NCBI RefSeq assembly: GCF_013113715.1
Contig: NZ_CP053344.1
Coordinates: 1,426,001 to 1,490,000, forward strand
Source of the DNA: Herbiconiux sp. SALV-R1
GTDB taxonomy: Bacteria; Actinomycetota; Actinomycetes; Actinomycetales; Microbacteriaceae
Reading direction: 5' to 3'
Length of the DNA: 64,000 nt
This document shows positions 19,574 through 61,059 of this stretch, one piece after another (within the stretch, counting starts at the first letter, position 1; the number at the start of each line of letters is the position of its first letter). The notes under the pieces were generated by a model. That model was not told the DNA's origin. It worked only from the letters and a program-made list of their open reading frames with translations, and searched no databases. Both the position numbers and the translations under genes were made by a program.

Positions 19574-20913
19574 GCGTGCTGGTCATCAGCCCCGACTACG
19601 CGTCGCATCTCCTGCCGCTCGTCACCCTCGCCGGGGCGTGGCTCGAGCGCGGGGAGGAGGTGGTCGTGGCGACGGGCGAGTCGACGGAGGCCATCGTCGC
19701 GAAGGCCGGCGCCCGCCGGGAGCACCTCCAACTCGGGCGCGGCTCCAACCCCGGCGTCATCAGGGCCGAGGAGCAGCCGCGCGACGAGGGTGCCTCGCTG
19801 CGGGGCTTCTTCGAGGCGACCCGCCGCGGCATGATCCCGACCCTCCGCTACCAGGCCGAGCAGCGGCTCACCGACCTCATGTGGCAGCCGGTGCAGAAGG
19901 CGCGGGAGACCGTCGCCGTGGTCGACGCCGTGCAGCCCGACACCATCCTCGTCGACCACCTCGCGTTCAGTGCGCGCCTCGGTCTGCAGGCCGCGCGCAT
20001 CCCGTACACCGACGTGGTGCTCGGCCACCCCTCAGCCCTTCCCGTCGGCGACGAGCTCTACGGACTGCCGAGCGCCTGGCCCGCGTGCTTCACGCCGCCC
20101 GCCGAGGAGGTCGAGCGCCTGCGCGAGCTGTGCCTGCGGGTGAGCGAGTCGTTCACCCGGGAGTGGAACACCGCCCTCGCCGAGCTCGACCCCCTCGCCA
20201 CCCCGTCGCCGTCGGCGTTCTCCGAGACGGGGGAGTCGCTGCTGTTCAACTACCCGGCCGCACTCGCCGACCCGTCGCGGGCCGCCTTCCTGCCGCCTCA
20301 CCGCTACCTCGGCTCGACGCCGCGCGACGACGGCGGCGACGTCGAGGTGGAGCGCTGGATCGCCTCCTCCGACGAGCCGTTCGTCTACGTGAGCTTCGGC
20401 AGCTTCCTCTCGGTGCGCGACGACGTGCTCGCCCGGGTCGCCGACGCCCTCCGCGAGGCCGGGCTGCGCGCCGCGATCGCGACGGGCTCGGGCGACCCGG
20501 CTCGCCTCGGCTCCGTGCCCGACAGCTGGCTCGTGCGCGAGTTCCTGCCGCAGGTCACCCTGCTCAGGTCGGCGGCCGCGGCCGTGACCCACGGCGGCAA
20601 CAACAGCGTCACCGAGGCCGCGACCTTCGGCGTACCCCTCGTCGTGCTCCCGTTCTCCACCGACCAGTTCGCGGGGGCGGCCGCCCTCGAGCGCGCCGGC
20701 GTGGGCGTCGCGCTCGACCCGAACACGGCGACGGTGCCCGAACTCGCGGCGGCGCTCCGCACGATCACGGGCGACGCAGCTGTCGGGGGCGGCGCCAGCG
20801 GTGGCGGCGTCGCCGGCTGGCGCGGCGGGGAACGGATGCGCGCCATCGCGGCCGAGCTCGCCGCCGCCCCCGGCCCCGAACTCGCCTACCGCGTGGGCTC
20901 GCCGATCCCGTAG
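19570..20913 (+). CDS. UGT/MGT-like glycosyltransferase (GT1 family)
   Basis: A 447-residue GT-B fold enzyme. The C-terminal donor-site motif is VTHGGNNSVTEAATFGVPLVVLPFSTDQ, the signature of UDP-glycosyltransferases acting on small lipophilic acceptors; given in parts, VTHGGNNS and PFSTDQ are the key residues. FVYVSFGSFLS marks the domain boundary near residue 275. The N-terminal half, which binds the acceptor, is unlike any I can name. It is translationally coupled to the HEAT-GT4 gene, so a two-step glycosylation is likely. The gene ends at one of the three related palindromes. Confidence 0.87.
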   Translation: MSVLVISPDYASHLLPLVTLAGAWLERGEEVVVATGESTEAIVAKAGARREHLQLGRGSNPGVIRAEEQPRDEGASLRGFFEATRRGMIPTLRYQAEQRLTDLMWQPVQKARETVAVVDAVQPDTILVDHLAFSARLGLQAARIPYTDVVLGHPSALPVGDELYGLPSAWPACFTPPAEEVERLRELCLRVSESFTREWNTALAELDPLATPSPSAFSETGESLLFNYPAALADPSRAAFLPPHRYLGSTPRDDGGDVEVERWIASSDEPFVYVSFGSFLSVRDDVLARVADALREAGLRAAIATGSGDPARLGSVPDSWLVREFLPQVTLLRSAAAAVTHGGNNSVTEAATFGVPLVVLPFSTDQFAGAAALERAGVGVALDPNTATVPELAAALRTITGDAAVGGGASGGGVAGWRGGERMRAIAAELAAAPGPELAYRVGSPIP

Positions 20914-20989
20914 CGTTCGAAAACGCAAACGTCGCGGCATCCGTCCCCGTAGAGGGCTCGGAGGCCGCGACGTGTGCGTTTCTGAACGC
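20913..20989. terminator. Palindromic convergent-gene terminator, copy 1
   Basis: The left arm at 20913-20938 contains GTTCGAAAACGCAAACGTCG and pairs with a right arm at 20964-20989 over about 26 bp with three mismatches. It fills the gap between the stops of a rightward glycosyltransferase and a leftward hydrolase gene. Closely related palindromes occur at 39757 and 60987. The right arm's CGTTT stretch may serve as the T-run in either direction. This copy is the most diverged of the three. Confidence 0.75.
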
Positions 20990-21014
20990 CCCGGAGACGG
21001 GGTCCCGCCCCGTG

Positions 21015-22229
21015 TCAGTTCTGCCCGACGCGCATCCGCTCGTCCATCCAGTCGAACATGCGCTGGGCGGTGAGGGTGCGAGCGAGTGGCTGGCAGTGGC
21101 CCGAGGCGCCCTCCGCCGCCGTGAAGTGCACGAGGGTCGACACGCTCTCGGTCAGCGCAGCGAGCCGCTCTGACTGCCCGGGCCAGAACTGCTCGCCCTC
21201 GGGGTCGGTGATGAGCAGCGGCGTGGTGATGCGGGCGGCGAGGTCGCCGAGTGCGTAGCGGCGCACGGCCTCGATGGTCTCGGCGTAGGCGCCGGGGGCG
21301 GTGCCGTAGGGGCGCGCCCGGAACTGCCAGGTGCGCGCCGTGTCTGGGCTCAGCTTCAGCCCCAACGCCATCTCCTTGTCGAACTTCTCGTTCTCGCCGC
21401 GATCGAGCAGCTTCAGCAGCGACGACGGGAGGTGCGAGGTCCACGAGGTGGAGACGTCGACGACTCCGGGGTCGGTGACGGCGGCGGCGAAGCGGTGCTC
21501 GAAGGCGAGCGCCCGCGCCACCCAGTAGCCGCCCTGGCTGATGCCGTACAGGCCGATGCGGGCCGGGTCGACGCCGGGCTGTGCCGCCACGAAGTCGTAG
21601 ACCGGGGTGAGCACGTTCTCCCAGTCGGGCCGGAACGGCACTCCCCGGTCGAACAGCTGCGTCTGCTGGCCCGGTCCGTCGAAGACGAGCACCGTGTAAC
21701 CCCGGCGGAGCGCCGGCGACACGCAGCTCGCCCAGAGCGAGGCGAGCGAGCCGTCGCTGCCGTTGACCGCCACGACCGTCGCTCCGCCGGCCGCGCCGGG
21801 GCGGAACAGGAAACCGGGCAGTGAGGCATTCTCGTAGGGGATACCGACGCGCTCGACCTGCACCGGCGTGTTGTCGACGAACGACTCCCACGCCCGGCGC
21901 TGCCGCCCGAAGGTGGGCGCGAGCCGGTCGGAGTCGGGCAGTGAGCTCACCGCGTTCACCGCGACGGCGTAGTAGTGCGAGGCCCGGAGGTACGCCTCGG
22001 CGGCGCTCACCCGGTGACCCCCCGCCGCCGCCTGGTCGGCGATCTCGGAGACCCGGTCGCCGAGCGAGGCCCACGCCACATACCAGGCCTCGTGGTCGCC
22101 TTTGCGGATGCCGGCGGTCGCCGCCAGCACTTCGCCCGGCTCCGACGCTCCCTCCACCGCGCCACCCAGCACGGTGCGGATCTCGAAGTCCCAGTCGTCG
22201 TTCGGCGAGAACCGGTCTCGGTCGTTCAT
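21015..22229 (-). CDS. Alpha/beta-hydrolase (FrsA/DUF1100-like, with N-terminal helical cap)
   Basis: A 404-residue enzyme. An N-terminal helical region (about residues 1-125, RVSAAEAYLRASHYYAVAV) precedes the alpha/beta-hydrolase core. The nucleophile elbow is GISQGG, the acid probably the Asp in LLITDPEGE, and the His in EGASGHCQPL. This arrangement resembles FrsA-like hydrolases and C-C-bond hydrolases such as 2,6-dihydroxypseudooxynicotine hydrolase. The substrate is unknown. AGAGGA precedes the ATG. It is divergent from hisD, 83 nt away. Confidence 0.85.
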   Translation of the reverse strand: MNDRDRFSPNDDWDFEIRTVLGGAVEGASEPGEVLAATAGIRKGDHEAWYVAWASLGDRVSEIADQAAAGGHRVSAAEAYLRASHYYAVAVNAVSSLPDSDRLAPTFGRQRRAWESFVDNTPVQVERVGIPYENASLPGFLFRPGAAGGATVVAVNGSDGSLASLWASCVSPALRRGYTVLVFDGPGQQTQLFDRGVPFRPDWENVLTPVYDFVAAQPGVDPARIGLYGISQGGYWVARALAFEHRFAAAVTDPGVVDVSTSWTSHLPSSLLKLLDRGENEKFDKEMALGLKLSPDTARTWQFRARPYGTAPGAYAETIEAVRRYALGDLAARITTPLLITDPEGEQFWPGQSERLAALTESVSTLVHFTAAEGASGHCQPLARTLTAQRMFDWMDERMRVGQN

Positions 22230-22297
22230 GGGTGTTGTCCTCTCGCCTGTGCCTCGATCCAGTGTGCCCGAAGGCTCCCCGCGGCGACAGCGCTCGG

Positions 22298-22303
22298 TAG
22301 GCT
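22298..22303 (+). promoter_or_regulatory. Putative hisD -10 box
   Basis: TAGGCT lies 9 nt before the hisD ATG, so transcription would begin only two or three bases upstream of the start codon. There is no ribosome site in that space. No -35 match is clear. Confidence 0.45.
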
Positions 22304-22312
22304 GGAACCGCC

Positions 22313-23629
22313 ATGATCCAGACCATCGACCTCCGCGGTCAGACCCCCACCCGTGCCGAGCTCGGAGCCCTCGTTCCGCGCGCCGCCACCGACGTCACCG
22401 TCGCGGCCACCGCCGCCGCCGAGCTCGTGGAGGCGGTGCGCACGCGCGGCCTCGACGCCCTGCGCGAGCAGGCCGAGCGCTTCGACCGGGTGGTGCCCGA
22501 GCACGTGCGGGTGCCGCAGGCGGCCATCGACGCCGCCGTCGAGGCCCTCGACCCGGCCGTGCGCTCGGCCCTCGAAGAGACCATCGCACGGGTGCGCCTG
22601 GCCACCGCCGCCCAGATTCCGGATGCTCGGGTCACCACACTCGACGACGGTGCGCTGGTCGAGCAGCGCTGGCACCCGGTGGAGCGTGTCGGGCTCTACG
22701 TTCCCGGCGGCAAGGCGGTCTACCCGTCGAGCGTCGTCATGAACGCGGTGCCCGCCCAGCTCGCGGGTGTGGGCTCCATCGCCCTCGTCTCGCCCCCGCA
22801 GAGCGAGTTCGGCGGCTCGGTGCACCCCACCATCCTCGCCGCCGCGGGCCTCCTCGGCCTCACCGAGGTGTACGCCATGGGCGGCGCCGGGGCCGTGGGT
22901 GCGCTGGCCTACGGGGTTCCCGAGCTCGGGCTCGAGCCCGTGGAGGTCATCACCGGCCCCGGCAACGTGTTCGTCGCCGCGGCGAAGCGCATCGTGCGCG
23001 GGGTCGTCGGCATCGACTCCGAGGCCGGGCCCACCGAGATCCTCGTCATCGCCGACGACAGCGCCGACGCCGGGTTCGTGGCCGCCGACCTGGTGAGCCA
23101 GGCCGAGCACGACGAGCTCGCCGCCGCGGTGCTCGTCACCGACTCGCCCGCCATGGCCGAGCGCGTGACGGCCGTGCTGGCCGAGGCGGCCGCGTCGACG
23201 CGGCACGCCGAGCGGGTGGCGATCGCCCTCGACGGACCGCAGTCGGCGATCGTGCTCGTCGACTCGCTCGAGGCCGCGGCCGCCGTGAGCAACGTGTACG
23301 GCCCCGAGCACCTCGAACTGCAGACCGCCGACACCGAGGCGACGCTCGCGCTCATCCACAACGCCGGCGCCGTCTTCGTGGGCGGGTACTCGCCGGTGAG
23401 CCTCGGCGACTACCTGGCCGGGTCGAACCACGTGCTGCCCACCGGCGGCCAGTCGCGCTTCTCCTCGGGCCTCGGTGCCTACACCTTCCTGCGTCCGCAG
23501 CAGATCATCCGCTACGACGAGGGCGCCCTGCGCGCCGTCGCCGACCGCATCGTCGCCCTCGCCGACGCCGAGAACCTCCCCGCCCACGGCGAGGCCGTCA
23601 CCGCCCGTTTCCGCCCGCTCGACAGCTGA
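22313..23629 (+). CDS. hisD: Histidinol dehydrogenase
   Basis: A 438-residue enzyme, the family's normal length. It oxidises L-histidinol to L-histidine in two NAD-dependent steps at the end of histidine synthesis. Family blocks are all present: VGLYVPGGKAVYPSSVVMN, ITGPGNVFVAAAKR, DSEAGPTEILVIAD, SQAEHDE (zinc and catalytic His/Glu), and VYGPEHLEL. It is first of a likely operon with a DUF1801 gene, nrdR and pyrD (gaps of 8, 12 and 7 nt). Other histidine genes are not in the window. Confidence 0.97.
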   Translation: MIQTIDLRGQTPTRAELGALVPRAATDVTVAATAAAELVEAVRTRGLDALREQAERFDRVVPEHVRVPQAAIDAAVEALDPAVRSALEETIARVRLATAAQIPDARVTTLDDGALVEQRWHPVERVGLYVPGGKAVYPSSVVMNAVPAQLAGVGSIALVSPPQSEFGGSVHPTILAAAGLLGLTEVYAMGGAGAVGALAYGVPELGLEPVEVITGPGNVFVAAAKRIVRGVVGIDSEAGPTEILVIADDSADAGFVAADLVSQAEHDELAAAVLVTDSPAMAERVTAVLAEAAASTRHAERVAIALDGPQSAIVLVDSLEAAAAVSNVYGPEHLELQTADTEATLALIHNAGAVFVGGYSPVSLGDYLAGSNHVLPTGGQSRFSSGLGAYTFLRPQQIIRYDEGALRAVADRIVALADAENLPAHGEAVTARFRPLDS

Positions 23630-23637
23630 CGCAGCGC

Positions 23638-24036
23638 ATGGCCGGGCTCAAGACGACCCCCTCCGACGCCGACGTCACCGCCTTCCTCGACGCGGTGCCC
23701 GACGCGCGTCGGCGCGCGGAGGGGCACGAGCTCCGCGCGCTCATCGAGAGCACCACCGGGCTCACCGCGCGGCTGTGGGGGCCGTCGATCGTGGGCTTTG
23801 GCGACGGCAGCTACACCACCACGAGCGGCACCCACCCCTGGTTCCTCGTGGGCTTCTCGCCGCGCAAGGCGGCGCTCACCCTCTACGGCGTGCACTCCGA
23901 CGACGAGGGGCCCGACCCGCGCCTGGGATCGCTCGGCCCGCACTCCACGGGCAAGGGCTGTCTCTACCTCAAGCGCCTCGACGCCGTCGACCGCGAGGTG
24001 CTCGCCGAGCTCATCCGGGAGGCCGCGGCAGGGTAG
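23638..24036 (+). CDS. DUF1801 protein
   Basis: A 132-residue soluble protein of the DUF1801 (YdhG-like) family. Diagnostic blocks are LWGPSIVGFGDGSYT, FLVGFSPRKAALTLY and KGCLYLKRLDAVD. The function is unknown; the fold resembles frataxin-like domains. It starts 8 nt after hisD with no strong ribosome site, so translational coupling is possible. A second DUF1801-family gene lies at 45827. Confidence 0.85.
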   Translation: MAGLKTTPSDADVTAFLDAVPDARRRAEGHELRALIESTTGLTARLWGPSIVGFGDGSYTTTSGTHPWFLVGFSPRKAALTLYGVHSDDEGPDPRLGSLGPHSTGKGCLYLKRLDAVDREVLAELIREAAAG

Positions 24037-24048
24037 CCTGGAGGGGCC

Positions 24049-24564
24049 ATGTTCTGCCCTTACTGCCGCTACCCCGACTCCCGCGTCGTCGACTCGCGCA
24101 CCACCGACGACGGCCTGGCCATCCGTCGCCGCCGCCAGTGCCCCGACTGCGGCCGGCGGTTCAGCACCACCGAGACCGCGTCGCTCAGCGTCATCAAGCG
24201 CTCCGGTGTGGTCGAGCTGTTCAGTCGCGAGAAGATCGTCAGCGGTGTGCGCAAGGCCTGCCAGGGCCGGCCCGTCACCGACAGCGACCTCGCGGTGCTC
24301 GCCCAGCGGGTCGAGGAGACGGTGCGCCTGTCGGGCGCCGCGCAGATCGAGGCGAACGACATCGGCCTCGCCATCCTGCAGCCGCTCCGCGAGCTCGACG
24401 AGGTCGCCTACCTGCGCTTCGCGAGCGTCTACCAGGGCTTCGACTCGCTCGACGACTTCGAGGCGGCGATCACGCTGCTGAGGGTCGAGCACGAGCAGGG
24501 CAGGTCGGGCGGGGAAGCTTCGGAACGAGCATCCGCTTCGCCGACCGGTTCCACGACAGAGTAG
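24049..24564 (+). CDS. nrdR: Transcriptional repressor NrdR
   Basis: A 171-residue regulator that represses ribonucleotide reductase genes when dATP is high. The N-terminal zinc ribbon has Cys pairs at CPYC (C3, C6) and CPDC (about C31, C34), and the ATP-cone follows ([16 protein letters not shown], to about residue 140). The C-terminal 25 residues are a disordered, Gly/Ser-rich tail. GGAGGGG precedes the ATG. It sits between DUF1801 and pyrD, in a nucleotide-synthesis context. No nrd gene is in the window. Confidence 0.96.
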
Positions 24565-24571
24565 GGCAGGC

Positions 24572-25612: not shown

Positions 25613-25636
25613 GGCGGGCCCGCGCGAGCGCTACCT

Positions 25637-26238: not shown

Positions 26239-26245
26239 TACCTGC

Positions 26246-31409: not shown

Positions 31410-31449
31410 GCAGAAGGCCCGCACCCCTTCGGGGATGCGGGCCTTCTGC
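31410..31449. terminator. Bidirectional hairpin between ctaF and a CWB2 gene
   Basis: A 14-bp perfect stem (GCAGAAGGCCCGCA with its complement) continues into a CCCC/GGGG step around a TTC loop. It lies between convergent genes and could stop transcription from either side. There is no clear T-run. Confidence 0.75.
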
Positions 31450-38585: not shown

Positions 38586-38591
38586 ATTATG
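38586..38591 (-). promoter_or_regulatory. -10 box of the ctaE-qcrCAB promoter
   Basis: CATAAT on the minus strand, then 7 nt, then the GTG at 38578. This is a near-consensus -10 box and implies a leaderless mRNA for the respiratory operon. It decides the ctaE start. Confidence 0.6.
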
Positions 38592-38668
38592 TCCGAATTC
38601 ACAGCTCGTTTTTGCATTTGGCCGTCCTGCCGCGGCATCACCGGCGTGTCTGTATACATCGGGGCCCA

Positions 38669-38674
38669 TAAGAT
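38669..38674 (+). promoter_or_regulatory. -10 box of a leaderless trpD promoter
   Basis: TAAGAT is followed by 7 nt and then the ATG at 38682, the same geometry as at 26233. It lies about 80 bp from the divergent ctaE -10 box. Confidence 0.6.
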
Positions 38675-38681
38675 CGCAGGT

Positions 38682-39734
38682 ATGGCTGACACGCTCTCCT
38701 GGCCCGCACTGATCGCCCAGCTGCTCTCGGGCACCGATCTGTCGATCTCGGAGGCGACCTGGGCGATGGACCGGGTGATGGAGGGTGAGGTCACCGAGGC
38801 GCAGCTCGCCGGCTTCCTGGTGGCACTGAATGCCAAAGGTGAGACCGTCGACGAGATCGTGGGCTTCCGCGACGCCATCCTCGACCACGCGCTGCCGCTG
38901 GCCGTCGACCCGTTCGCGCTCGACATCGTGGGCACGGGCGGAGACCGTTTCGGCACGGTGAACGTGTCGACGATGGCTTCGATCGTCGCCGCGGCGAGCG
39001 GGGTTCCGGTGATCAAGCACGGCAACAAGGCGGCGAGCTCGCTGTCGGGCTCGTCAGACGTGCTGCGCGCGCTCGGCGTCGACCTCGAGCTCGAACCCGA
39101 GCGCGTCGCCGCGGTGCTCGGCGAGGCGGGGATCTCGTTCGCCTTCGCCTCCAAGTTCCACCCCGGGTTCAAGAACGCCGGCGCGGTGCGGGCTCAGTTG
39201 GGGGTGCCGACGGTGTTCAACTACCTCGGTCCGCTGTGCAACCCGGCGCGTGCGGAGGCGTCGGCGGTGGGGGTCGCGCACCTCGACCGGGTTCCGCTCA
39301 TCGTGGGGGTGTTCCAGACCCGCGGCGCGACCGCGCTCGTGTTCCGCGGCGACGACGGGCTCGACGAGCTCACCACCACCGGCCACAGCCACATCTGGGA
39401 GGTCTCCCGCGGATCGGTGAAGGAGCACGACCTCAACCCGCGCGACCTCGGCATCCCGATCGCAAAGATCGAGCAGCTGAAGGGCGGCGACGCCGAGTTC
39501 AACGCCGACGTCGTGCGCCGCGTGATGGCCGGCGAACAGGGGCCCGTGCGCGACATGGTGGTGCTGAACGCGGCGGCAGGGCTCGCCGCCTACCGCCTCG
39601 CGCTCGACCCCACCCAGGTCGACCGCCCGCTGCTCGAGCGCCTCGAGGAGCAGATGACCGTCGCCCGCACCACCCTCGACACCGGCGCCGCCTCCCGCAA
39701 ACTCGACCAGTGGGTCGCCGCCACCAGAAGCTGA
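38682..39734 (+). CDS. trpD: Anthranilate phosphoribosyltransferase
   Basis: A 350-residue enzyme that joins anthranilate to phosphoribosyl pyrophosphate in tryptophan synthesis. Signature motifs are IVGTGGDRFGTVNVST (PRPP/Mg site), KHGNKAASS and NYLGPLCNPA. It is separate from the other trp genes, divergent from ctaE. The same neighbourhood is known in mycobacteria, where trpD adjoins ctaE-qcrCAB. The ATG at 38682 is preferred over longer frames because of the -10 box 7 nt upstream. Confidence 0.95.
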   Translation: MADTLSWPALIAQLLSGTDLSISEATWAMDRVMEGEVTEAQLAGFLVALNAKGETVDEIVGFRDAILDHALPLAVDPFALDIVGTGGDRFGTVNVSTMASIVAAASGVPVIKHGNKAASSLSGSSDVLRALGVDLELEPERVAAVLGEAGISFAFASKFHPGFKNAGAVRAQLGVPTVFNYLGPLCNPARAEASAVGVAHLDRVPLIVGVFQTRGATALVFRGDDGLDELTTTGHSHIWEVSRGSVKEHDLNPRDLGIPIAKIEQLKGGDAEFNADVVRRVMAGEQGPVRDMVVLNAAAGLAAYRLALDPTQVDRPLLERLEEQMTVARTTLDTGAASRKLDQWVAATRS

Positions 39735-39756: not shown

Positions 39757-39829
39757 GTTCGAAAACGCAAACGTCGCGCCGACCTGCGCCCGGGAGGGCG
39801 CGGTCGGCGCGACGTTTGCGTTTTCGAAC
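39757..39829. terminator. Palindromic convergent-gene terminator, copy 2
   Basis: Two 28-nt arms, 39757-39784 and 39802-39829, are perfect reverse complements. An inner GCGCCC/GGGCGC stem (39786-39791 with 39796-39801) closes a 4-nt loop, giving a 34-bp hairpin. The outer arms begin GTTCGAAAACGCAAACGTCG, almost identical to copies at 20913 and 60987. It lies between the stops of trpD and glpK. Confidence 0.88.
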
Positions 39830-39838: not shown

Positions 39839-41353
39839 TCAGACGACGTCGTCGTCGACCCAGTCGAGGGTCTTCGTGACGGCCTTCTTCCAGTTGCGGA
39901 GCTGACGCTCGCGCTCGGCCTCGTCCATCTGGGGGGTCCAGCGGGAGTCCTCCTGCCAGTTCGAGCGCAGCTCGTCGAGGTTCGCCCAGTAGCCGACCGC
40001 GAGACCGGCGGCGTACGCGGCGCCGAGCGCCGTGGTCTCCGCGACGACGGGGCGCACGACGGGCACGCCGAGGATGTCGGCCTGGAACTGCATGAGCAGG
40101 TTGTTGGCGATCATGCCGCCGTCGACCTTCAGCTCCTCCAGCGGCACGCCCGAGTCGGCGTTGACGGCGTCGAGCACCTCGCGGGTCTGGAACGCGGTCG
40201 CCTCCAGGGCCGCCCGGGCGATGTGCGCCTTGTTCACATACCGGGTGAGGCCCACGAGGGCGCCACGCGCATCCGGTCGCCAGTAGGGGGCGAAGAGTCC
40301 GGAGAACGCGGGGACGAAGTACGCGCCGCCGTTGTCCTCGACCGAGGCCGCGAGGGTCTCGACCTCGGGGGCGGAGGAGATGATGCCGAGGTTGTCGCGC
40401 AGCCACTGGATGAGAGACCCGGTCACCGCGATCGACCCTTCCAGCGCGTAGTGGGCCGGCTCGTCGCCCAGCTTGTACCCGAGGGTGGTGAGCAGGCCGT
40501 TCTTCGAGTGCACGATCTCGGTGTCGGTGTTGAAGATGAGGAAGTTGCCGGTGCCGTAGGTGTTCTTCGCCTCGCCGGGCCCGAACGCCGCCTGGCCGAA
40601 GGTGGCCGCCTGCTGGTCGCCCAGGATGCCCGCGACGGGCACCTCGCGCAGCAGCGACGAGCTGTGCACCGTGCCATACACCTCGGAGCTCGACTTGATC
40701 TCGGGGAGCATCGACCGCGGCACCCCGAACGCCTCGAGGATGTCGTCGCGCCACTCGAGCGTCTCGAGGTCCATGAACAGGGTGCGGGAGGCGTTCGTCA
40801 CGTCGGTCGCGTGCACGCCGCCGTCGACCCCGCCCGTGAGGTTCCACAGCACCCAGCTGTCGGTCGTGCCGAACAACAGGTCGCCGGCCTCGGCGGCCTC
40901 GCGGGCACCGTCGACGTTCTCGAGGATCCAGACGATCTTCGTTCCCGAGAAGTAGGTGGCCAGCGGCAGGCCCACGATCGGCTTGAAGCGCTCGACCCCG
41001 CCGTCTTCGGCGAGGCGGTCGACGATGGGCTGGGTGCGGGTGTCCTGCCAGACGATCGCGTTGTAGACGGGCTCGCCGGTGTTCTTGTTCCACACCACGG
41101 CGGTCTCGCGCTGGTTCGTGATGCCCACGGCCTTCACGTTGTGGCGGGTGATGTTGGCCTTCGACAGCGCCTGGCCGATGACCTCGCGGGTGTTGTCCCA
41201 GATCTCCTTCGGGTCGTGCTCGACCCAGCCGGCCTTGGGGAAGATCTGCTCGTGCTCCTTCTGACCGGTCGAGACGATCGAGCCCGAGTGGTCGAAGACG
41301 ATCGCGCGGGTGCTCGTGGTTCCCTGATCGATGGCGATGATGTAGTCCGTCAT
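39839..41353 (-). CDS. glpK: Glycerol kinase
   Basis: A 504-residue FGGY-family kinase that phosphorylates glycerol to glycerol-3-phosphate. Blocks seen: [43 protein letters not shown], and the C-terminal FGGY signature region ([20 protein letters not shown]). Length matches the family. It lies 110 nt after glpF on the same strand with a hairpin between, so it may be expressed at a different level. Confidence 0.96.
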
Positions 41354-54626: not shown

Positions 54627-54627
54627 C

Positions 54628-55083: not shown

Positions 55084-55189
55084 CTGCTTGATCCTCACTG
55101 TCGATCTGATCTCTTCGTGCTCTCGAGCCAACGCGGCACCCGGATGCCCTCCAAGGCCTTGACATCGAACTCACAGCACCCGAAGGGCC

Positions 55190-55220
55190 TTGACCTGGAG
55201 TGCGCTCCAGCTTGCACGAT
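55190..55220 (+). promoter_or_regulatory. MerR-type promoter with 19-bp spacer and central dyad
   Basis: The -35 box TTGACC (55190-55195) and -10 box CACGAT (55215-55220) are 19 bp apart, the unusual spacing used by MerR regulators. The dyad CTGGAG-TGCG-CTCCAG (55195-55210) lies between them. The start codon of the MerR-AKR gene is 6 nt past the -10 box, so the protein probably controls its own leaderless mRNA. A weaker TTGACA is at 55159. Confidence 0.75.
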
Positions 55221-55226
55221 GGGGGC

Positions 55227-56606
55227 ATGACGATCATCCCGCTGCCCACCTTCGACATCGACGTGCCCGCATCCGGCCTCTCCATCGGCGAGGTCGCCCG
55301 CCTCACCGGCCTCAGCATCGACACCCTCCGCTATTACGAGCGCGAGGGCCTGCTGCTCGACCCCGCGCCGCGCGACCCCGGCGGCCGGCGGCGGTACGGC
55401 GCCTCCGACCTCGACTGGATCGCCGGGCTCATCATGCTGCGGGAGACCGGCATGGGGATCGCCGAGGTGCGGCGCATGGCCGAACTCAGCCGGAGCTCCG
55501 GCACGGAGCCGGCGCGACTGGTGGTTCTCGAGCGCCATCGCGAGGAGGTTCTCGCCGCCCTCGAGCGCACCCGCGCGCATCTCGCCGCGCTCGACTCCAA
55601 GATCGCCGCCTACCGCCTCGCCGACTTCCCCCGCACCGCGCTCGGCGACGGCCTTCGGGTCTCGGCCATCGGGCTCGGAGCGATGGGCATGAGCGCGTTC
55701 TACGGGGCGAGCGACGAGCAGGAGTCGACCGCGACCCTGCGGCGCGCCGTCGATCTCGGCGTGACCTTCCTCGACACCGCGGAGGCGTACGGGCCGTTCG
55801 AGAACGAGAAGCTCATCGCGAGAGCCCTCGGTGACCGCCGCGACGAGGTGGTGCTCGCCACGAAGGCGTCGAGCGAGACCGACGACGACGGCACCGTGCA
55901 CGGCCGCAACGGCACCCCGGCCTACATCAAGCGGGCCGCCGAGCGGTCGCTGCGGCACCTCGGCACCGACGTGATCGACCTCTACTACCTGCACCGGGTC
56001 GACCCTAAGGTGCCCATCGAGGAGAGCGTCGGGGCGATGTCGGAGCTCGTCGCCGAGGGCAAGGTGCGGCACATCGGCCTGTCGGAGGCGTCGGAGGCGA
56101 CCATCAGGCGGGCGCACGCCGTGCATCCGCTCGCCGCCGTGCAGTCGGAGTTCTCGCTGTTCTCGCGCGACGTGCTGCACAACGGCGAGAAGGCCGTGAT
56201 GGACGAGCTGGGCATCGGGCTGGTGGCCTTCTCGCCGCTCGGGCGCGGGCTGCTCACGGGGAGCATCCGCTCGGCGTCAGACCTCGATGCGACGGATGCG
56301 CGGTTCGGCCTCCCGAGGTTCCAGGGCGAGGCGATCGCGGCGAACGCGGCGCTCGCCGACCGGGTCGCGGCCGTGGCGGCGGAGCGCGGCGCGACCGCGG
56401 CGCAGGTCGCCCTGGCGTGGGTGAGGGCCCACGGGGCGGTGCCGATCCCCGGCACCCGTCGCCGGGCGCGGCTCGAGGAGAACGCGGCGGCTGCGGCACT
56501 CGAGCTCACCGAGGCGGAGCTGGAGCGGCTCGCCGAGGCGCTGCCCGAGTCGGAGATCGTGGGCACGCGGGACGCCGGGCCGGTGGTGCCGGGCACCGAC
56601 CGCTGA
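55227..56606 (+). CDS. MerR regulator fused to an aldo/keto reductase
   Basis: A 459-residue fusion. Residues 15 to about 85 form a MerR DNA-binding head (SIGEVARLTGLSIDTLRYYE), and a coiled dimerisation helix runs to about 130. The rest is a complete aldo/keto reductase: DTAEAYGPFENEKL (Asp, Tyr), LATKASS (Lys) and LYYLHRVD (His) supply the catalytic tetrad, and GTRRRARLEENAAA the NADPH phosphate site. In separate proteins MerR-type factors often control such reductases; here sensor and enzyme are one chain. The start at 55227 is fixed by the promoter. Confidence 0.9.
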   Translation: MTIIPLPTFDIDVPASGLSIGEVARLTGLSIDTLRYYEREGLLLDPAPRDPGGRRRYGASDLDWIAGLIMLRETGMGIAEVRRMAELSRSSGTEPARLVVLERHREEVLAALERTRAHLAALDSKIAAYRLADFPRTALGDGLRVSAIGLGAMGMSAFYGASDEQESTATLRRAVDLGVTFLDTAEAYGPFENEKLIARALGDRRDEVVLATKASSETDDDGTVHGRNGTPAYIKRAAERSLRHLGTDVIDLYYLHRVDPKVPIEESVGAMSELVAEGKVRHIGLSEASEATIRRAHAVHPLAAVQSEFSLFSRDVLHNGEKAVMDELGIGLVAFSPLGRGLLTGSIRSASDLDATDARFGLPRFQGEAIAANAALADRVAAVAAERGATAAQVALAWVRAHGAVPIPGTRRRARLEENAAAAALELTEAELERLAEALPESEIVGTRDAGPVVPGTDR

Positions 56607-56735
56607 GCGGGGGAGCGGCGGTGGCCGGCGCGGCGGGCGACCGACCGCGGCACCCGGCCAGGGTTGGAGCCCGCGGCCCAAGCCCCGTGCCCGCGGTCGG
56701 TGGACCGAGCCCGCGGCCCGCGGCCCGCGCGGTTC
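56607..56735. repeat. Inverted and direct repeats between convergent genes
   Basis: CCGACCGCGG (56641-56650) and CCGCGGTCGG (56691-56700) form a perfect 10-bp inverted repeat 40 nt apart. GAGCCCGCGGCCC occurs at 56667 and 56707, also 40 nt apart. The region could fold into a terminator for either gene. It contains no gene. Confidence 0.55.
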
Positions 56736-57683
56736 TCAGGTGCGGTCGACGACGTTCTCGAGGGGGCCGCCGGCTCGGAGGGCCTCGAGGTTGCGGGCGA
56801 TCAGGGCGGCGGCGCCACGGGGGCGGTTGCCCGCCGCGTGCGGGGTGAGCAGGAGGTTCGGCGTCGACCACAGGGGCGAGTCGGCGGGCAGCGGCTCCTG
56901 CTGCATCACGTCGAGGGCGGCGGCGCGCAGACGGCCCGAGGTGAGGGCGTCGACGAGGGCCTGCTCGTCGACGGTGGCCCCACGGCCGACGTTCACGAAC
57001 ACGGCGCCGGGCTTCATCGCGTCGAGGAGCGGCGCGCCGAAGGCCTTCTCGGTCTGAGGCGTCGCCGGCAGCAGCGAGATGAGCACGTCGACGCCGGCGA
57101 GGTGGGCGTGGAGCCCCGCGTCGTCGACCACCTCGTAGCCGAAACGGGTTCCCGCGCTCGACGCGACGCCGGTGACCTGCGCGCCCAGCAGCTCGAACAT
57201 CGGGGCCAGCGTGCGGGCGATGGAGCCGAAGCCCCAGATGCAGACGTGGGCGCCGGCCAGCGTGTAGAGGTGCTCGGTCGCGGGGTCGCGCTGAGCCTCG
57301 AGGAACTCCTCGTCCCAGACAGCGTCGCGCTGCGCATCCCGCATCAGGTCGAGGCGTCGCACCAGAGCGAGCACCAGCGCGAGGGTGTGCTCGGCGACCG
57401 TCTCGTCGTGCAGGGAGCGGCCCGAGGTGACCACGACGTCGGGGGAGAAGCCGGCGGCGAGCACCGCATCCGGGCCCGCGGCCAACGTCTGCACGAGCTT
57501 CAGGTCGCCGAGGTGACGGGCGGCGTCGGCGAGGTTATCGGCCGTGTTGCGCCAGGCCACCAGCACCTCGGCGTCGCGGTGCTCGGCAGGGATGGCGACC
57601 GAGGGGTCGTAGACGACCGCGGTGTCGGACTCCCCGATCTTGAGGGCGCTGAGGTCGGTGGTGTCGGGGAGGAGGATCTTCAT
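56736..57683 (-). CDS. D-isomer-specific 2-hydroxyacid dehydrogenase
   Basis: A 315-residue NAD-dependent dehydrogenase. The Rossmann motif is CIWGFGSIARTLAPMFELLGA; catalytic residues fit Arg in VFVNVGRGATVDE, Glu in DVMQQEPLP and His in LTPHAAGNRP. Substrate specificity cannot be deduced. The ATG at 57683 is preceded by GGAGGATC. It is divergent from the SDR gene. Confidence 0.9.
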   Translation of the reverse strand: MKILLPDTTDLSALKIGESDTAVVYDPSVAIPAEHRDAEVLVAWRNTADNLADAARHLGDLKLVQTLAAGPDAVLAAGFSPDVVVTSGRSLHDETVAEHTLALVLALVRRLDLMRDAQRDAVWDEEFLEAQRDPATEHLYTLAGAHVCIWGFGSIARTLAPMFELLGAQVTGVASSAGTRFGYEVVDDAGLHAHLAGVDVLISLLPATPQTEKAFGAPLLDAMKPGAVFVNVGRGATVDEQALVDALTSGRLRAAALDVMQQEPLPADSPLWSTPNLLLTPHAAGNRPRGAAALIARNLEALRAGGPLENVVDRT

Positions 57684-57805
57684 GCCTCCATTCTGGCCGC
57701 CCGGCGCGGTCGACGCCCGGCGGCGGTGCCGGAGGGCTGTCAACCCCCGTGCCGACGGGCGGTGCGTCCGTAGGGTGCGAAGAGACACCCCGATGGAGGA
57801 CAGAC

Positions 57806-58642
57806 ATGCCAGAAGCAGAGCAGCAGACCCCGCCCGGTTCCGAGCAGGAGCTCGAGCAGAAGCCCGACCACGGGGAGGACAGCTACGTCGGCAGCGGCAG
57901 ACTCGCCGGCAAGGTCGCACTCATCACGGGCGGCGACAGCGGCATCGGCAAGGCGGTCGCGATCGCCTACGCGCGCGAAGGAGCCGACGTGGCCATCTCC
58001 TACCTCTCCGAGCACGAGGATGCGGCCGAGACCTGCGCACTCGTGGAGGCGGCGGGCCGGAAGGTCCTGAGCATCCCCGGTGACATAGCCGACCCGGCGC
58101 ACTGCCGGTCGATCGTCGAGCAGACGGTGGCGGAGTTCGGGCGCATCGACGTGCTCGTCAACAACGCGGCGTTCCAGATGGATCGGCCGACGATCGAAGA
58201 CATCCCCGACGAGGAATGGGACTACACGTGGGCGGTGAACGTGAGCGCCTACTTCCATCTGGTGAAGGCGGCGCTGCCGCACATCCCGGCGGGCGGATCG
58301 ATCATCGGCTCGACCTCGGTGCAGTCGGACAAGCCGTCGCCGAACCTGCTCCCGTACGCCGCGACCAAGGCGGCGGTGGCGAGCATCAGCGCGTCGCTCG
58401 CGCAGATGCTGGCGGAGCGGGGCATCCGGGCGAACAGCGTGGCGCCGGGGCCGATCTGGACGCCGCTCATCCCGGCGACCATGGAGCCCGACAAGGTCGA
58501 GAGCTTCGGCTCGCAGTCGCCGCTCGGCCGCCCGGGCCAGCCCGCCGAGCTCGCGCCCGTCTACGTCATGCTCGCCTCCGACGAGGCCAGCTACGTCTCG
58601 GGCGCCCGCATCGCCGTCACCGGCGGCACGCCCATCCTCTGA
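57806..58642 (+). CDS. Short-chain dehydrogenase/reductase (YhdG/GsiB-type, stress-related subfamily)
   Basis: A 278-residue SDR with a 45-residue acidic N-terminal extension (EQQTPPGSEQELEQKPDHGED), typical of the stress-linked YhdF/YghA type. The cofactor motif is TGGDSGIGKA, the active site SSTSV...YAATKAA (Ser, Tyr, Lys), and NNAAFQM the NNAG equivalent. Substrate unknown. The ATG at 57806 follows GGAGGACAG. TAGGGT near 57770 may be its -10 box. Confidence 0.9.
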   Translation: MPEAEQQTPPGSEQELEQKPDHGEDSYVGSGRLAGKVALITGGDSGIGKAVAIAYAREGADVAISYLSEHEDAAETCALVEAAGRKVLSIPGDIADPAHCRSIVEQTVAEFGRIDVLVNNAAFQMDRPTIEDIPDEEWDYTWAVNVSAYFHLVKAALPHIPAGGSIIGSTSVQSDKPSPNLLPYAATKAAVASISASLAQMLAERGIRANSVAPGPIWTPLIPATMEPDKVESFGSQSPLGRPGQPAELAPVYVMLASDEASYVSGARIAVTGGTPIL

Positions 58643-58652
58643 GCCGGGCAGG

Positions 58653-58679
58653 GGCCGGGCGCTGCGCACGCCCGGCCCG
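58653..58679. terminator. Hairpin between SDR and APC permease genes
   Basis: GGGCCGGGCG pairs perfectly with CGCCCGGCCC around a 7-nt loop, between convergent genes. It fits a factor-independent or bidirectional terminator, without a T-run. Confidence 0.65.
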
Positions 58680-58703
58680 CTTGGCCCGCCCGTGGCGCGG
58701 CTG

Positions 58704-60050
58704 CTAACGCGTCGACGAACCCCGGGTGGGCGCATCCGTCTTCGACGAGGTGGCGCGGCGCACGAGGTAGAGCACCACGCCCAGCACGACGAAGGCGCCG
58801 CCGAACGCCCAGACGAGCGGCTCCTGCTGGGTGAGCAGCAGGATGCACGAGAGTACGCCGAGCACGGGAACCCAGGTCCACACCCTGAAGTGCTCGTGCT
58901 CGACCCGCTGCCTGCGCAGCACGAGCACCGCCACGTTCGTGCTGATGAACACGAACAGCAGCAGCAGCACGACCGCCGAGGCGAGGGTCTCGAGATCGCC
59001 GACGAGCGTGAGCAGCATCGCGATGACGGTGGTGGCGACGATGGCCACCCACGGTGTGCGCCGCTTCGGCAGCACCCTCGACAGCACCGGCGGCAGCAGT
59101 CCCTGCTCCGCCATGCCGTAGGTCACGCGGCTCGTCATGATCATGGTGAGCAGCGCGCCGTTCGCCACCGCCACGAGCGCGATGAGGCTGAACAGCCAGT
59201 CGGGCACCGGGAATCCGGTGGCCGCGACCACCGCGAGCAACGGCCCCGAGGACTCGGTGAGGTCCTCGGCGGGCAGGGCGATGGCGGATGCGAGACCCAC
59301 CAGCACATACACCGCACCCGCCGTGACGAGCGCCCCCAGCAGGGCGCGCGGGTACACCCGCGAGGGGTCGCGCACCTCCTCGGCGACGTTGGCCGAGGTC
59401 TCGAAGCCCACGAAGGAGTAGTAGGCGATGATCGCTCCGCCGAGCACCGCCAGGGCGGGGGACGAATCGGCGGGGAACTCGGTCACCCGTGAGACGTCGC
59501 CCCCGCCGCCGCCCAGCATGGCCGCCACGGCGACGACGACGATCACGAGGCCGGAGACCTCGATGACGGTCATCACCACGTTGCTCTTGACCGACTCGCT
59601 GATGCCGCGGGCGTTGAGCGCGGCGACCAGCACGAGGAAGACCATGGCCGCCGGGATCGGCGGAACCGGCAGGAAGGTCTGCAGGTACTCCCCGGTGAAG
59701 GCCAGGGCGAGCCCTGCGGCGCTCACCACCCCGGCGGCGAGCATGCAGAAGCCGACGAGGAACGAGATGATCGGCGGCTTGAAGGCCCGCTGCGCGAACA
59801 CGGCCGCTCCGCCCGCCTTGGGGTACTTCGTGACGAGCTCGGCGTACGACCCGGCGGTGAGGAGCGCCAGGAGCAGGGCCAGCAGCAGCGGAGCCCACAG
59901 CGCCCCGCCGACCTCTCCGGCCAGCACCCCCATCAGCGCGTAGATGCCGGCGCCGAGCACGTCGCCGAGGATGAACAGGAACAGGAGCGGACCGGTGATG
60001 CGACGCTTGAGCTTCGTCTCGCCGGCCCGCGCATCCGTCTGGGATGTCAC
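58704..60050 (-). CDS. APC-family amino acid permease
   Basis: A 448-residue transporter with 12 membrane helices. The first helix has LGDVLGAGIYALMG, matching the substrate-site GxGIY/F motif of the family; IIAYYSFVGFETSANVAEEVRDPSR is the typical helix 6 region (FVGFE as key). Substrate is probably an amino acid or polyamine, but none can be named. The GTG at 60050 has GGAGG upstream, and the longer frame to 60371 is not supported. Confidence 0.9.
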   Translation of the reverse strand: MTSQTDARAGETKLKRRITGPLLFLFILGDVLGAGIYALMGVLAGEVGGALWAPLLLALLLALLTAGSYAELVTKYPKAGGAAVFAQRAFKPPIISFLVGFCMLAAGVVSAAGLALAFTGEYLQTFLPVPPIPAAMVFLVLVAALNARGISESVKSNVVMTVIEVSGLVIVVVAVAAMLGGGGGDVSRVTEFPADSSPALAVLGGAIIAYYSFVGFETSANVAEEVRDPSRVYPRALLGALVTAGAVYVLVGLASAIALPAEDLTESSGPLLAVVAATGFPVPDWLFSLIALVAVANGALLTMIMTSRVTYGMAEQGLLPPVLSRVLPKRRTPWVAIVATTVIAMLLTLVGDLETLASAVVLLLLFVFISTNVAVLVLRRQRVEHEHFRVWTWVPVLGVLSCILLLTQQEPLVWAFGGAFVVLGVVLYLVRRATSSKTDAPTRGSSTR

Positions 60051-60221
60051 GATGAGCCTCCGTTGTGCGCGACCCGCGTTCGGGCCGCGTCGCTCGCGAC
60101 CGTAGGCGCGCACCCGCCCGCCGCCGAGGGGCTGGACAACCGGCGCGCGCGGCCGTACGCGCGCGCGGACACTCTCGACGCACCCGGGCGTCGACGGGGC
60201 CATCATGGCGGGCGACTCTTG

Positions 60222-60245
60222 ATAGGCAAGTCGATACTTGCCTAT
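60222..60245 (+). promoter_or_regulatory. ArsR-type operator over the arsR-VOC promoter
   Basis: ATAGGCAAGT-CGAT-ACTTGCCTAT is a perfect 10-bp inverted repeat. It overlaps the -10 box TATAGT (60243-60248), and TTGATA (60219-60224) is a matching -35 box 18 nt upstream. The GTG at 60255 is 6 nt after the -10, so the mRNA is leaderless and the operator covers the whole promoter. Confidence 0.8.
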
Positions 60246-60254
60246 AGTGGGCTC

Positions 60255-60545
60255 GTGGCCGACGTGTTCAAGGCTCTCGCCGACGAAACTCGGCGCGCGC
60301 TGCTCGACGAACTGCTGCTCCACGACGAGCAGACGCTGTTCGAGCTGTGCTCCCGGCTGGCCATGAGCCACGGCATCTCACCCAGCCGCCAGGCCGTCTC
60401 GCAGCACCTCGAGGTGCTCGAGTCCGCGGGGCTGGTGCACCGGGAGCGCCGGGGCAAGTACACCTTCCACACCATCGACACCGCACCGCTCGCGCAGATC
60501 GCCGAGCGCTGGCCGGTGCGAGAGAGCAGAGAGAAGCAGTCATGA
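60255..60545 (+). CDS. ArsR-family transcriptional repressor
   Basis: A 96-residue winged-helix regulator. ADVFKALADETRRALLDELL and SRQAVSQHLEVLESAGLVHRERRGK are the hallmark blocks. It has a single Cys (FELCSRLA), so metal sensing by a Cys cluster is doubtful; the signal may be organic. It probably binds the perfect dyad at 60222-60245 and represses itself and the downstream VOC gene, which it overlaps by 4 nt (ATGA). Confidence 0.92.
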   Translation: MADVFKALADETRRALLDELLLHDEQTLFELCSRLAMSHGISPSRQAVSQHLEVLESAGLVHRERRGKYTFHTIDTAPLAQIAERWPVRESREKQS

Positions 60546-60931
60546 AACTCCAGACCGTGAGCGTCTTCGTCGACGACCAGCAGCGCGCCGTCGAGTTCTA
60601 CACCGAGCGTCTCGGCTTCGCGGTGGCGGCCGACGTGCCCCTGGGGGAGCACCGCTGGCTCACCGTCGTCGACCCCGAGCTGCCGGGCGGCACCCAGCTC
60701 TCGCTCGAGCCGAAGGGGCACCCCGCGGTCGGCCCGTTCACCGAGGCGCTGGCGGCCGACGGCATCCCCTTCCTGCAGCTCGGCGTCGACGACGTGCAGG
60801 CCGAGTACGAGCGCCTGGTGGGCCTCGGAGTCACCTTCACCCAGCCGCCCACGGCCATGGGCCCGGTCATCGTCGCGGTGCTCGACGACGGCTGCGGCAA
60901 CCTGCTCCAGCTCGCCCAGTTCGTGAGTTGA
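60542..60931 (+). CDS. VOC/glyoxalase-family protein
   Basis: A 129-residue vicinal-oxygen-chelate fold protein: VFVDDQQRAVEFYTERLGF and LDDGCGNLLQLAQF are the two halves' ends. Metal ligands of true glyoxalase I are not all apparent, so it may be a resistance or binding protein. It is co-expressed with the ArsR-type repressor. It is followed by the third palindromic terminator. Confidence 0.88.
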   Translation: MKLQTVSVFVDDQQRAVEFYTERLGFAVAADVPLGEHRWLTVVDPELPGGTQLSLEPKGHPAVGPFTEALAADGIPFLQLGVDDVQAEYERLVGLGVTFTQPPTAMGPVIVAVLDDGCGNLLQLAQFVS

Positions 60932-60986
60932 GCGGGCGGTAGCCGCCGTAGGCGCGCGAGCCGAGGGGCACCGCGCGGGCGGCTCG

Positions 60987-61059
60987 GTTCGAAAACGCAA
61001 ACGTCGCGCCGACCGCGCCCGTCCAGGCGGAGGTCGGCGCGACGTTTGCGTTTTCGAAC
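60987..61059. terminator. Palindromic convergent-gene terminator, copy 3
   Basis: Two 28-nt arms (60987-61014 and 61032-61059) are perfect reverse complements around a 17-nt loop. The arm sequence is identical to that of copy 2 at 39757, and only the loop differs. It lies between the stops of the VOC gene and the third CWB2 gene. Confidence 0.88.

What the first reader, a model, noticed from the sequence alone, without database searches (positions are those of the whole stretch)
20913..61059. A family of conserved long palindromes, each placed between convergent genes
Three palindromes (20913-20989, 39757-39829, 60987-61059) share the arm sequence GTTCGAAAACGCAAACGTCG; copies 2 and 3 have identical 28-bp perfect arms with different loops, and copy 1 has three mismatches. 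Each lies exactly between two convergent stop codons and nowhere else in the window. Identical arms with diverged loops suggest selection or copying of the arm sequence. They may be a dispersed bidirectional terminator family, or a mobile palindromic repeat tolerated only at convergent ends.
Basis: partly seen in the sequence, partly recalled or inferred. Interest (0 to 1): 0.75.

Follow-up and report, generated by a model that had tools for sequence, protein, structure and literature searches.

The report
Palindromes paired with a nuclease gene
Three look-alike DNA hairpins in this window belong to a scattered bacterial repeat family that sits just behind genes and whose sequence changes from species to species in step with a DNA-cutting enzyme encoded between two copies of the same hairpin, which looks like a new kind of selfish repeat with its own partner enzyme.

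Summary
The three palindromes belong to a family of 73-bp palindromes (about 30 copies in this Herbiconiux-like genome; matches in 14 of 16 genus genomes). "Only between convergent genes" is true in the window, not genome-wide: of 72 copies in three genomes 33 are convergent, 32 tandem (30 nearer the upstream stop), 2 divergent. They are 3'-end elements; bidirectional termination fits but is unmeasured. The new result is a partner. End sequences come in species-specific types, and one site in two sister species carries different types with flanks alignable up to the element. At the suf locus two elements flank a gene for a DUF559 (Vsr/homing-endonuclease-like) protein. Its tree groups by element type, the adjacent sufC-sufT tree does not, and arms of dispersed copies correlate with nuclease identity (Mantel p about 0.01), not with sufC-sufT. 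Of 29 such Herbiconiux nuclease genes 26 have a palindrome beside them (0 of 89 control gene ends); in other Microbacteriaceae 16 of 28 (7 of 106). It works like REPIN/RAYT, but RAYT is absent from element-bearing genomes and the enzyme is unrelated. Mobilisation is inferred, not shown; G006 is an exception.

The parts
20915..20987 (.). 73-bp palindromic element, copy 1 (imperfect: GTTCGAAA arm / GTTCAGAA arm); type A
39757..39829 (.). 73-bp palindromic element, copy 2 (28-bp perfect arms); identical 73/73 to the copy at G000:C1:2260600, both beside glycerol kinase (glpK) paralogues
60987..61059 (.). 73-bp palindromic element, copy 3 (28-bp perfect arms, different centre); absent at the orthologous convergent junction of sister genome G014
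19570..20913 (+). flanking gene, UDP-glycosyltransferase-like; stop 1 bp before copy 1
21015..22229 (-). flanking gene, prolyl-oligopeptidase (S9)/hydrolase-like
38589..39734 (+). flanking gene, glycosyl transferase family 3 domain protein (start uncertain; my caller starts it at 38766)
39839..41353 (-). flanking gene, glycerol kinase GlpK
60542..60931 (+). flanking gene, glyoxalase/VOC family
61091..62992 (-). flanking gene, cell-wall-binding repeat 2 protein

Best explanation
The three palindromes are members of a dispersed, non-autonomous repeat family of Herbiconiux. Shown: a 73-bp unit with conserved ends, base-paired stem and variable centre; about 30 copies in this genome, sitting mostly just behind stop codons; species-specific end types; a partner gene (DUF559 nuclease domain, weakly AbiEi-like N-terminus) between two copies at the suf locus, whose phylogeny follows the element type and not the neighbouring genes. 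Inferred: the protein recognises its own element type and, by nicking or cutting, causes new copies to be made and old copies or other hairpins to be replaced, as RAYT is thought to do for REPINs or a homing endonuclease for its site. Also inferred: copies persist at gene 3' ends because there a symmetric hairpin is harmless or useful as a bidirectional terminator or mRNA 3'-end stabiliser.
For: 73-bp unit at 29 of 32 model matches in G000, unrelated 15-bp flanks. Ends GTTC and CGCA kept in 8 to 10 of the 10 copies most diverged in the middle. 86.9% of cells paired, 148 double-change cells against 75 in shuffles. 60 of 72 copies within 60 bp of a stop; divergent junctions avoided. Same site, different type: sisters G002 and G003 with flanks 93% and 88% identical up to 0-6 bp from the element; suf locus in 11 genomes, four type groups. 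Nuclease tree of 11 suf-locus proteins: 4 type labels in 3 changes (the minimum), 0 of 200 shuffles; sufC-sufT tree needs 5 (55 of 200 shuffles as low), type A one clade in 0% of 200 bootstraps. Mantel on dispersed copies, suf copies removed, 10 genomes: nuclease r 0.44 p 0.010; sufC-T r -0.20 p 0.84. Palindrome beside 26 of 29 Herbiconiux nuclease genes (34 of 57 ends) against 0 of 89 control ends; 16 of 28 in other genera (20 of 56 ends) against 7 of 106; arms on the two sides of one gene resemble each other, 0.64 against 0.46, 0 of 1000 shuffles. DUF559 over cut-off in 9 of 9; PDB 3r3p 'Mobile intron protein' E 3e-6. G001 has no such nuclease and 0 R1 and 1 weak R2 element matches.
Against: No movement was observed and no clean empty site found; where G014 lacks copy 3 the surrounding intergenic bases differ too. 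No target-site duplication (0 of 71 for k 4 to 9). G006 has a lineage-I nuclease, but neither of its two nuclease-flanking palindromes resembles its 5 dispersed copies; the one dispersed copy read in G015 and one of two in G010 also lack a matching nuclease flank. Types were named by eye and genomes are not pure: G002 11 of 17 D2 and 4 A-like, G005 7 of 9 B, G012 4 of 8 D; D and D2 share the outermost bases, and merged they are not shown to be one nuclease clade. In the Mantel test G004, G009 and G013 have one dispersed copy each and G008 is left out; the N-terminal third correlates less (r 0.33) than the middle (0.56) and the nuclease part (0.52), which does not favour an N-terminal reader. 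G000 orthologues in G014 (0.80-0.96) are closer than the average paralogue in 19 of 19, though closer than every paralogue in only 4. Termination not measured; the simple terminator scan did not report the three elements, and type E lacks a T-rich arm. Structure model unusable.
Confidence: 0.58

Rival explanations
1. The palindromes are ordinary bidirectional intrinsic terminators (or 3'-end stabilisers) kept by selection, and the family likeness comes from occasional gene duplication and conversion; the nuclease is a bystander.
For: Position behind stops; GC-rich core flanked by AAAACGCAAA / TTTGCGTTTT; at the junction of a fatty-acid-CoA-ligase-like gene and def, G000 and G014 carry the 73-mer while other species carry other hairpins or none; the only identical pair of copies in G000 lies beside two glpK paralogues; folding z -7 to -10 on both strands.
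Against: Does not explain the constant 73 bp, conserved outer ends in copies with a decayed middle, same-site type differences, or the match of end type to nuclease clade. Type E lacks a T-rich arm.
Confidence: 0.2
2. The nuclease gene is a homing gene that uses palindromes as its landing site: the palindromes are targets, spread by other means, and the nuclease evolves to follow them.
For: Nuclease domain resembles a mobile-intron protein and weakly the homing endonuclease model PDLC03678 in 3 of 3 proteins; the gene lies between two elements, as if inserted at one.
Against: The suf-locus gene sits at the same place in 11 genomes, so it is not itself moving often; it does not explain concerted change of the ends of other copies.
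Confidence: 0.2
3. MITE- or REPIN-like element moved by a conventional transposase (RAYT/Y1 or a DDE insertion sequence) now lost or elsewhere.
For: Inverted conserved ends at fixed spacing, dispersal, 3'-end location as in REPs.
Against: Y1 transposase in 1 of 16 genomes, G001, one of the two with no R1 match; no TSD; 41 of 43 arm matches in G000 belong to 73-bp units and none was seen around a long element, though not all DNA between copies was annotated.
Confidence: 0.05

Closest known systems
REPIN / RAYT systems (REP doublets and REP-associated tyrosine transposase)
   Same: Inverted conserved ends at fixed distance forming one hairpin; intergenic; several types, each near its own enzyme gene; REPs also lie close to gene 3' ends (passages seen of PMC3116915 and PMC3733652).
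   Different: RAYT/Y1 not found in the 14 genomes with R1 elements, no GTAG end, about 30 copies, enzyme is a DUF559 (Vsr/homing-endonuclease-like) protein.
CGTC-tagged REPs
   Same: Dispersed palindromes with no dedicated transposase known (passages of PMC3733652).
   Different: Described there as REPs of 20-40 bp tagged by CGTC at one end; here the unit is 73 bp and CGTC lies inside the stem of some types only.
DNA uptake sequence dialects of Neisseriaceae used as terminators
   Same: Lineage-specific dialects, inverted pairs linked to terminators, tail-to-tail enrichment, a reader protein (passages of PMC3630211 and PMC1852404).
   Different: Thousands of short copies there; here about 30 full palindromes, and 41 of 43 arm matches belong to them.
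Vsr-related homing endonucleases (PDB 3r3p; identity as I-Bth0305I recalled, paper not held)
   Same: Nuclease domain matches by profile.
   Different: Here with a weakly AbiEi-like N-terminus and flanked by palindromes, not inside an intron.
ERIC and other intergenic palindromes (recalled)
   Same: Long imperfect palindromes of unknown mobiliser in intergenic DNA.
   Different: No sequence test made.

Membership tests
REPIN/RAYT | RAYT (Y1 HUH) transposase in the genome | tested here: not met
   PF01797 in 1 of 16 genomes (G001), which has 0 R1 element matches
REPIN/RAYT | inverted conserved ends at fixed distance, forming a hairpin | tested here: met
REPIN/RAYT | GTAG tetranucleotide at one foot | tested here: not met
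   ends are GTTC/GAAC
REPIN/RAYT | repeats flank the gene of the cognate enzyme | tested here: met
   met by an unrelated enzyme:
REPIN/RAYT | excision or transposition intermediates | not testable with these tools
   needs deep population sequencing
CGTC-tagged REP | 20-40 bp palindrome with CGTC at one end | tested here: not met
   73 bp, GTTC ends; definition from passages
MITE | terminal inverted repeats | tested here: met
MITE | target-site duplication | tested here: not met
   0 of 71 copies for k of 4 to 9
MITE | parent insertion sequence with the same ends | tested here: inconclusive
   none seen in G000, but not all intervening DNA was annotated and other genomes were not searched for it
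bidirectional intrinsic terminator | stable GC-rich hairpin on both strands at convergent or tandem 3' ends | tested here: met
bidirectional intrinsic terminator | T-rich tail after the core stem | tested here: inconclusive
   type A TTTGCGNTTTC lies inside the paired arm; scan did not report it; type E has none
bidirectional intrinsic terminator | transcripts end there | not testable with these tools
   no RNA data
DNA uptake sequence | hundreds to thousands of short single copies | tested here: not met
   43 arm matches in the genome, control 0
Rfam RNA family | match above gathering score | tested here: not met
   0 matches in the window
DUF559 nuclease (partner gene) | PF04480 above curated cut-off | tested here: met
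   9 of 9 proteins; PF18741 (MTES_1575) below its cut-off in 9 of 9
AbiEi-like N-terminus (partner gene) | PF13338 above curated cut-off | tested here: inconclusive
   above in 1 of 9, below in 5, not listed in 3, among them the G000 protein, which matches a PADLOC AbiEi model at E 6e-4

The most novel reading that the evidence does not exclude
A new class of selfish repeat: short palindromes copied and exchanged in trans by a cognate DUF559 (Vsr/homing-endonuclease-like) nuclease encoded between copies of its own palindrome, found across the Microbacteriaceae, with several nuclease lineages per genome each keeping its own palindrome family, and with the palindromes co-opted as bidirectional 3'-end hairpins.
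Probability: 0.42. Interest if true: 0.92.

Novelty: new variant of a known kind. Interest (0 to 1): 0.8.

Why it matters
REPINs are a well-studied bacterial repeat population with a cognate enzyme, a Y1 tyrosine (HUH) transposase. A second, unrelated enzyme family with its own palindromes would show that 'repeat plus reader' systems arose more than once. It would also give a function to a common protein of unknown role (the profile matches in 105 of 150 Microbacteriaceae genomes), suggest how terminator hairpins can be swapped wholesale between species, and offer an actinobacterial model for homing-like spread of non-coding DNA.

Tried and rejected
Rfam search of the window: nothing. Y1/RAYT transposase: not found in element-bearing genomes. 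Target-site duplication: none; the flanks extend the palindrome slightly more than shuffled flanks (mean 1.13 against 0.72 bp, 0.15% of shuffles). Plasmid and phage collections: no match to copy 1; two viral contigs have a lone arm match without the palindrome. Outside Herbiconiux: R1 at E<=1e-5 found 2 of 150 genomes, both Herbiconiux (stricter filters). The core pattern in 299 genomes hit 5 Herbiconiux and 13 other genomes; the latter have one or two hits each, of which the printed ones show no paired interior by eye, and the reversed control hit 10 genomes. Simple terminator scan: did not report the elements. Terminus bias: weak (KS p 0.04 for 22 strong copies, 0.07 for 28). Structure prediction of the G008 nuclease: mean pLDDT 38.6, not used, no fold search made. 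Viral relatives of the nuclease: none. Paper searches: DUF559 with palindrome/repeat/endonuclease, 15 of 9,063 listed and none of those on this subject; 0 papers hold both DUF559 and 'inverted repeat'; Herbiconiux with palindrome 1 review, not on this. Only the held open-access library was searched.

Rows dropped: one search left out five of the 77 rows (window 12468, L083:3001, L073:10583, L075:3001, L089:3001) as not of the 73-bp GTTC family. Alignments A1 and A3 hold one of the two identical copies; A3 also leaves out the 72-bp L106. The 72 copies are not independent: 19 G000 copies have an orthologue in G014. The 29 nuclease loci are 29 of the 50 matches counted (30 fetched; L332, a partial match, left out); the 28 of other genera are best-scoring matches. 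Control ends are single gene ends, the 26 of 29 and 16 of 28 count genes. A looser control gave 9 of 57 window genes, family copies included. Copies outside G000 were not collected exhaustively.
Full report
1. Observation. The three palindromes exist. The repeated unit is 73 bp: 20915-20987, 39757-39829, 60987-61059. Arm matches in the window are 6, against 0 in 100 shuffles. All three lie between convergent stop codons, in 3 of 14 convergent junctions called by my own gene finder; 8 of the 14 are shorter than 25 bp and have no room for an element.

2. The family in this genome. The window lies at 1,426,001-1,490,000 of a 4.40-Mb contig. The arm pattern gives 43 matches genome-wide, control 0; 36 of them form 18 pairs at exactly 52 bp, 5 more belong to units whose other arm has more than 3 mismatches, 2 are unrelated. 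A covariance model (R1, from 19 copies) finds 62 strand matches at 32 places, 29 of them 73 bp long. Twenty copies cut as 73-bp windows show 24 to 32 of 36 palindromic pairs and unrelated 15-bp flanks. One pair of copies is identical, 39757 and 2,260,600; both lie beside glycerol kinase paralogues, so that identity may come from a gene duplication. R1 matches in 14 of 16 genus genomes and in no other genus among 150 family genomes.

3. Anatomy. On 70 copies of G000, G003 and G014 aligned without gaps, 86.9% of stem cells pair, and 148 cells show a change on both sides against 75 in shuffles. Compensatory change in a palindrome can also come from templated mutation (recalled), so this alone does not prove selection. 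GTTC and CGCA at the ends are conserved at 95% or more. In the 10 copies with the most diverged middle they are still kept in 8 to 10 of 10 at each base on each side. Some G003 copies were found through one arm only, so that arm is ascertained. Positions 30-31 against 43-44 pair less often than independence would give (0.33 and 0.31 against 0.48), a conserved internal loop near the tip. No direct repeat of 4 to 9 bp flanks any of 71 copies.

4. Where copies sit. Of 72 copies in three genomes, 33 are convergent, 32 tandem, 2 divergent (one orthologous locus), 4 inside called ORFs, 1 undetermined; 30 of 32 tandem copies are nearer the upstream stop (median 12 bp), and 60 of 72 lie within 60 bp of a stop. 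Against junctions of at least 75 bp in the fetched loci (copy-bearing ones included), divergent junctions are avoided (Fisher p 5e-5) and convergent ones preferred (p 6e-4). Orthologues make these counts partly dependent. Twenty further copies of G002, G005, G007 and G012 are 13 convergent, 5 tandem, 1 divergent, 1 inside. REPs have the same pattern (most conv-REPs under 20 bp from both ORF ends; passages of PMC3733652).

5. Function at the 3' end. Both strands fold strongly. The core is flanked by A-rich and T-rich arms, as in bidirectional terminators (TransTermHP passages, PMC1852404). At the junction of a fatty-acid-CoA-ligase-like gene and peptide deformylase (named; the ligase is below the cut-off of its best model), G000 and G014 carry the 73-mer, while other species carry other hairpins or none. 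This fits terminator exchange. The simple scan did not report the elements, and type E of G009/G013 has no T-rich arm. Termination is therefore plausible, not shown.

6. Types. A broader model (R2) matches in the 11 genus genomes other than G000, G003, G004, G008 and G014 (G001 once, weakly). End sequences differ by species: A (G000, G003, G004, G008, G014) GTTC(GA/AG)AANCGCAAACG; B (G005) GTTCAGAAATGCAGAAAT; C (G006) GTTC....ACGCAAGAATCG; D (G011, G012) GCGGAC..C.CCAAACG; D2 (G002, G007) GGA(C/G)TTCTCCAAACG; E (G009, G013). The names are mine, given by eye; D and D2 share their outermost bases. Genomes are mostly but not wholly of one type among the copies read: G007 6 of 6, G011 7 of 7, G006 5 of 5, G005 7 of 9, G002 11 of 17 (4 A-like), G012 4 of 8.

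7. Same place, different type. G002 and G003 are sisters by aspS (100/100) and by sufC-sufT (100/99). At one convergent junction their flanks are 93% and 88% identical up to 0-6 bp from the element, yet G002 has a 70-bp D2 element and G003 a 73-bp A element. Behind sufT (SufT/PaaD-like, below the cut-offs; sufC above its cut-off) 11 genomes carry an element, of four type groups; the suf locus of the other five was not looked at. Of 30 copies that have an orthologue of another type, 24 are closer on average to copies in their own genome than to the best such orthologue (conditional on a type difference). Within type A, 19 G000 copies have a G014 orthologue; it is closer than the average paralogue in all 19 and closer than every paralogue in 4.

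8. The partner gene. At the suf locus elements lie on both sides of a gene of about 295 codons in 11 of 11 genomes (10 by R2, G007's second by palindrome). The protein matches DUF559 (PF04480) above cut-off in 9 of 9 tested; AbiEi_4 is above cut-off in 1, below in 5, not listed in 3. By profile it matches PDB 3r3p 'Mobile intron protein' (E 3e-6) and 3hrl (E 1e-4). E190, D217, E227, D229 and H234 are invariant in 22 sequences; that they form the nuclease core is my reading. In the tree of the 11 proteins A is one clade (100/99), D 94/95, D2 100/100, E 100/100: 3 changes, the minimum, reached by 0 of 200 label shuffles. The sufC-sufT genes next to it need 5 changes (55 of 200 shuffles as low), and type A is one clade in 0% of 200 bootstraps. 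To avoid circularity I removed all suf-locus elements: arm similarity of dispersed copies between 10 genomes correlates with nuclease identity (Mantel r 0.44, p 0.010; given sufC-T r 0.45, p 0.010) and not with sufC-T identity (r -0.20, p 0.84). The N-terminal third correlates less (0.33) than the middle (0.56) and the nuclease part (0.52). The nuclease of G003 is 0.81 identical to that of G014 and 0.56 to that of its sister G002, with arms 0.83 and 0.55.

9. Generality. Fifteen of 16 Herbiconiux genomes have relatives of this nuclease; G001 has none. Of 29 nuclease loci examined, 26 have a palindrome of at least 45 bp within 250 bp on one or both sides (34 of 57 ends), against 0 of 89 control gene ends in the same loci. 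The three without are L312, L319 (contig edge) and L323. The nuclease tree has three main groups, and the second and third have their own palindromes. By eye, in G005 the flank of L321 matches that genome's type B dispersed copies, and in G000 the flank of L330 (GTATGAG...CTCATAC) matches a second, 65-bp family found at two other places. In Microbacteriaceae the profile matches in 105 of 150 genomes, 63 of 85 genera. Of 28 fetched loci of other genera 16 have such a palindrome (20 of 56 ends), against 7 of 106 control ends. In 18 loci with a palindrome on both sides (looser score), the two resemble each other more than those of different loci (0.64 against 0.46, 0 of 1000 shuffles). Whether those genera hold dispersed copies was not tested.

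10. Reading. The elements work like REPINs with a RAYT, but the enzyme class, the ends and the size differ, so they are not members. The step from co-variation to mobilisation is inference; a nuclease that follows its target rather than moving it is the main alternative. Exceptions: G006 (its two nuclease flanks do not resemble its 5 type C copies), the one copy read in G015, and one of two in G010. No paper in the held library has both DUF559 and 'inverted repeat'; this says nothing about papers not held.

Noticed in passing
window 12467-12531: Another near-perfect 28-bp-arm palindrome (GTTGGCAAGCGCGAAGCGCG...), between divergent genes by my caller; scores 53 bits with R1 because it pairs well, but its arms are unrelated. 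Family or operator unknown.
   Followed up: partly
window 31410-31449: Hairpin GCAGAAGGCCCGC..GCGGGCCTTCTGC in another convergent junction; looks like a plain terminator.
   Followed up: no
L083:3001-3065, L073:10583-10647, L330 3' side (G000): Second palindrome family of 65 bp (GAACGGTATGAGAATCG ends) in the same genome, resembling by eye the palindrome beside a second DUF559 nuclease.
   Followed up: partly
L304 about 2430-2460 and suf loci of other species: Between element and nuclease start lie two TTGTCCACA-like sequences (resemble DnaA boxes, motif recalled), partly conserved across species; possible replication-linked control.
   Followed up: no
3' end of aspS in several Herbiconiux genomes: A hairpin with a core like GAGGACCGACGCC..TATAGGGCGTCGGTCCTC lies behind aspS in 9 of the 15 genomes shown, with species-specific outer arms; it resembles palindromes beside second-group nucleases.
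   Followed up: partly
G000 contig C1: Strong copies lean to the half of the chromosome far from dnaA (16 of 22; KS p 0.04, weak).
   Followed up: partly
L104:2001-2073 (G003), L088:7457-7529 (G000): Copies inside called ORFs: at the N-terminus of an scpB-like gene (name by eye) and within a ROK-family gene; possibly taken into coding sequence or a wrong start.
   Followed up: no
L071:3001-3250 (G000), L122:2001-2196 (G014): Tandem pairs of elements at one convergent junction, in both sister genomes.
   Followed up: no
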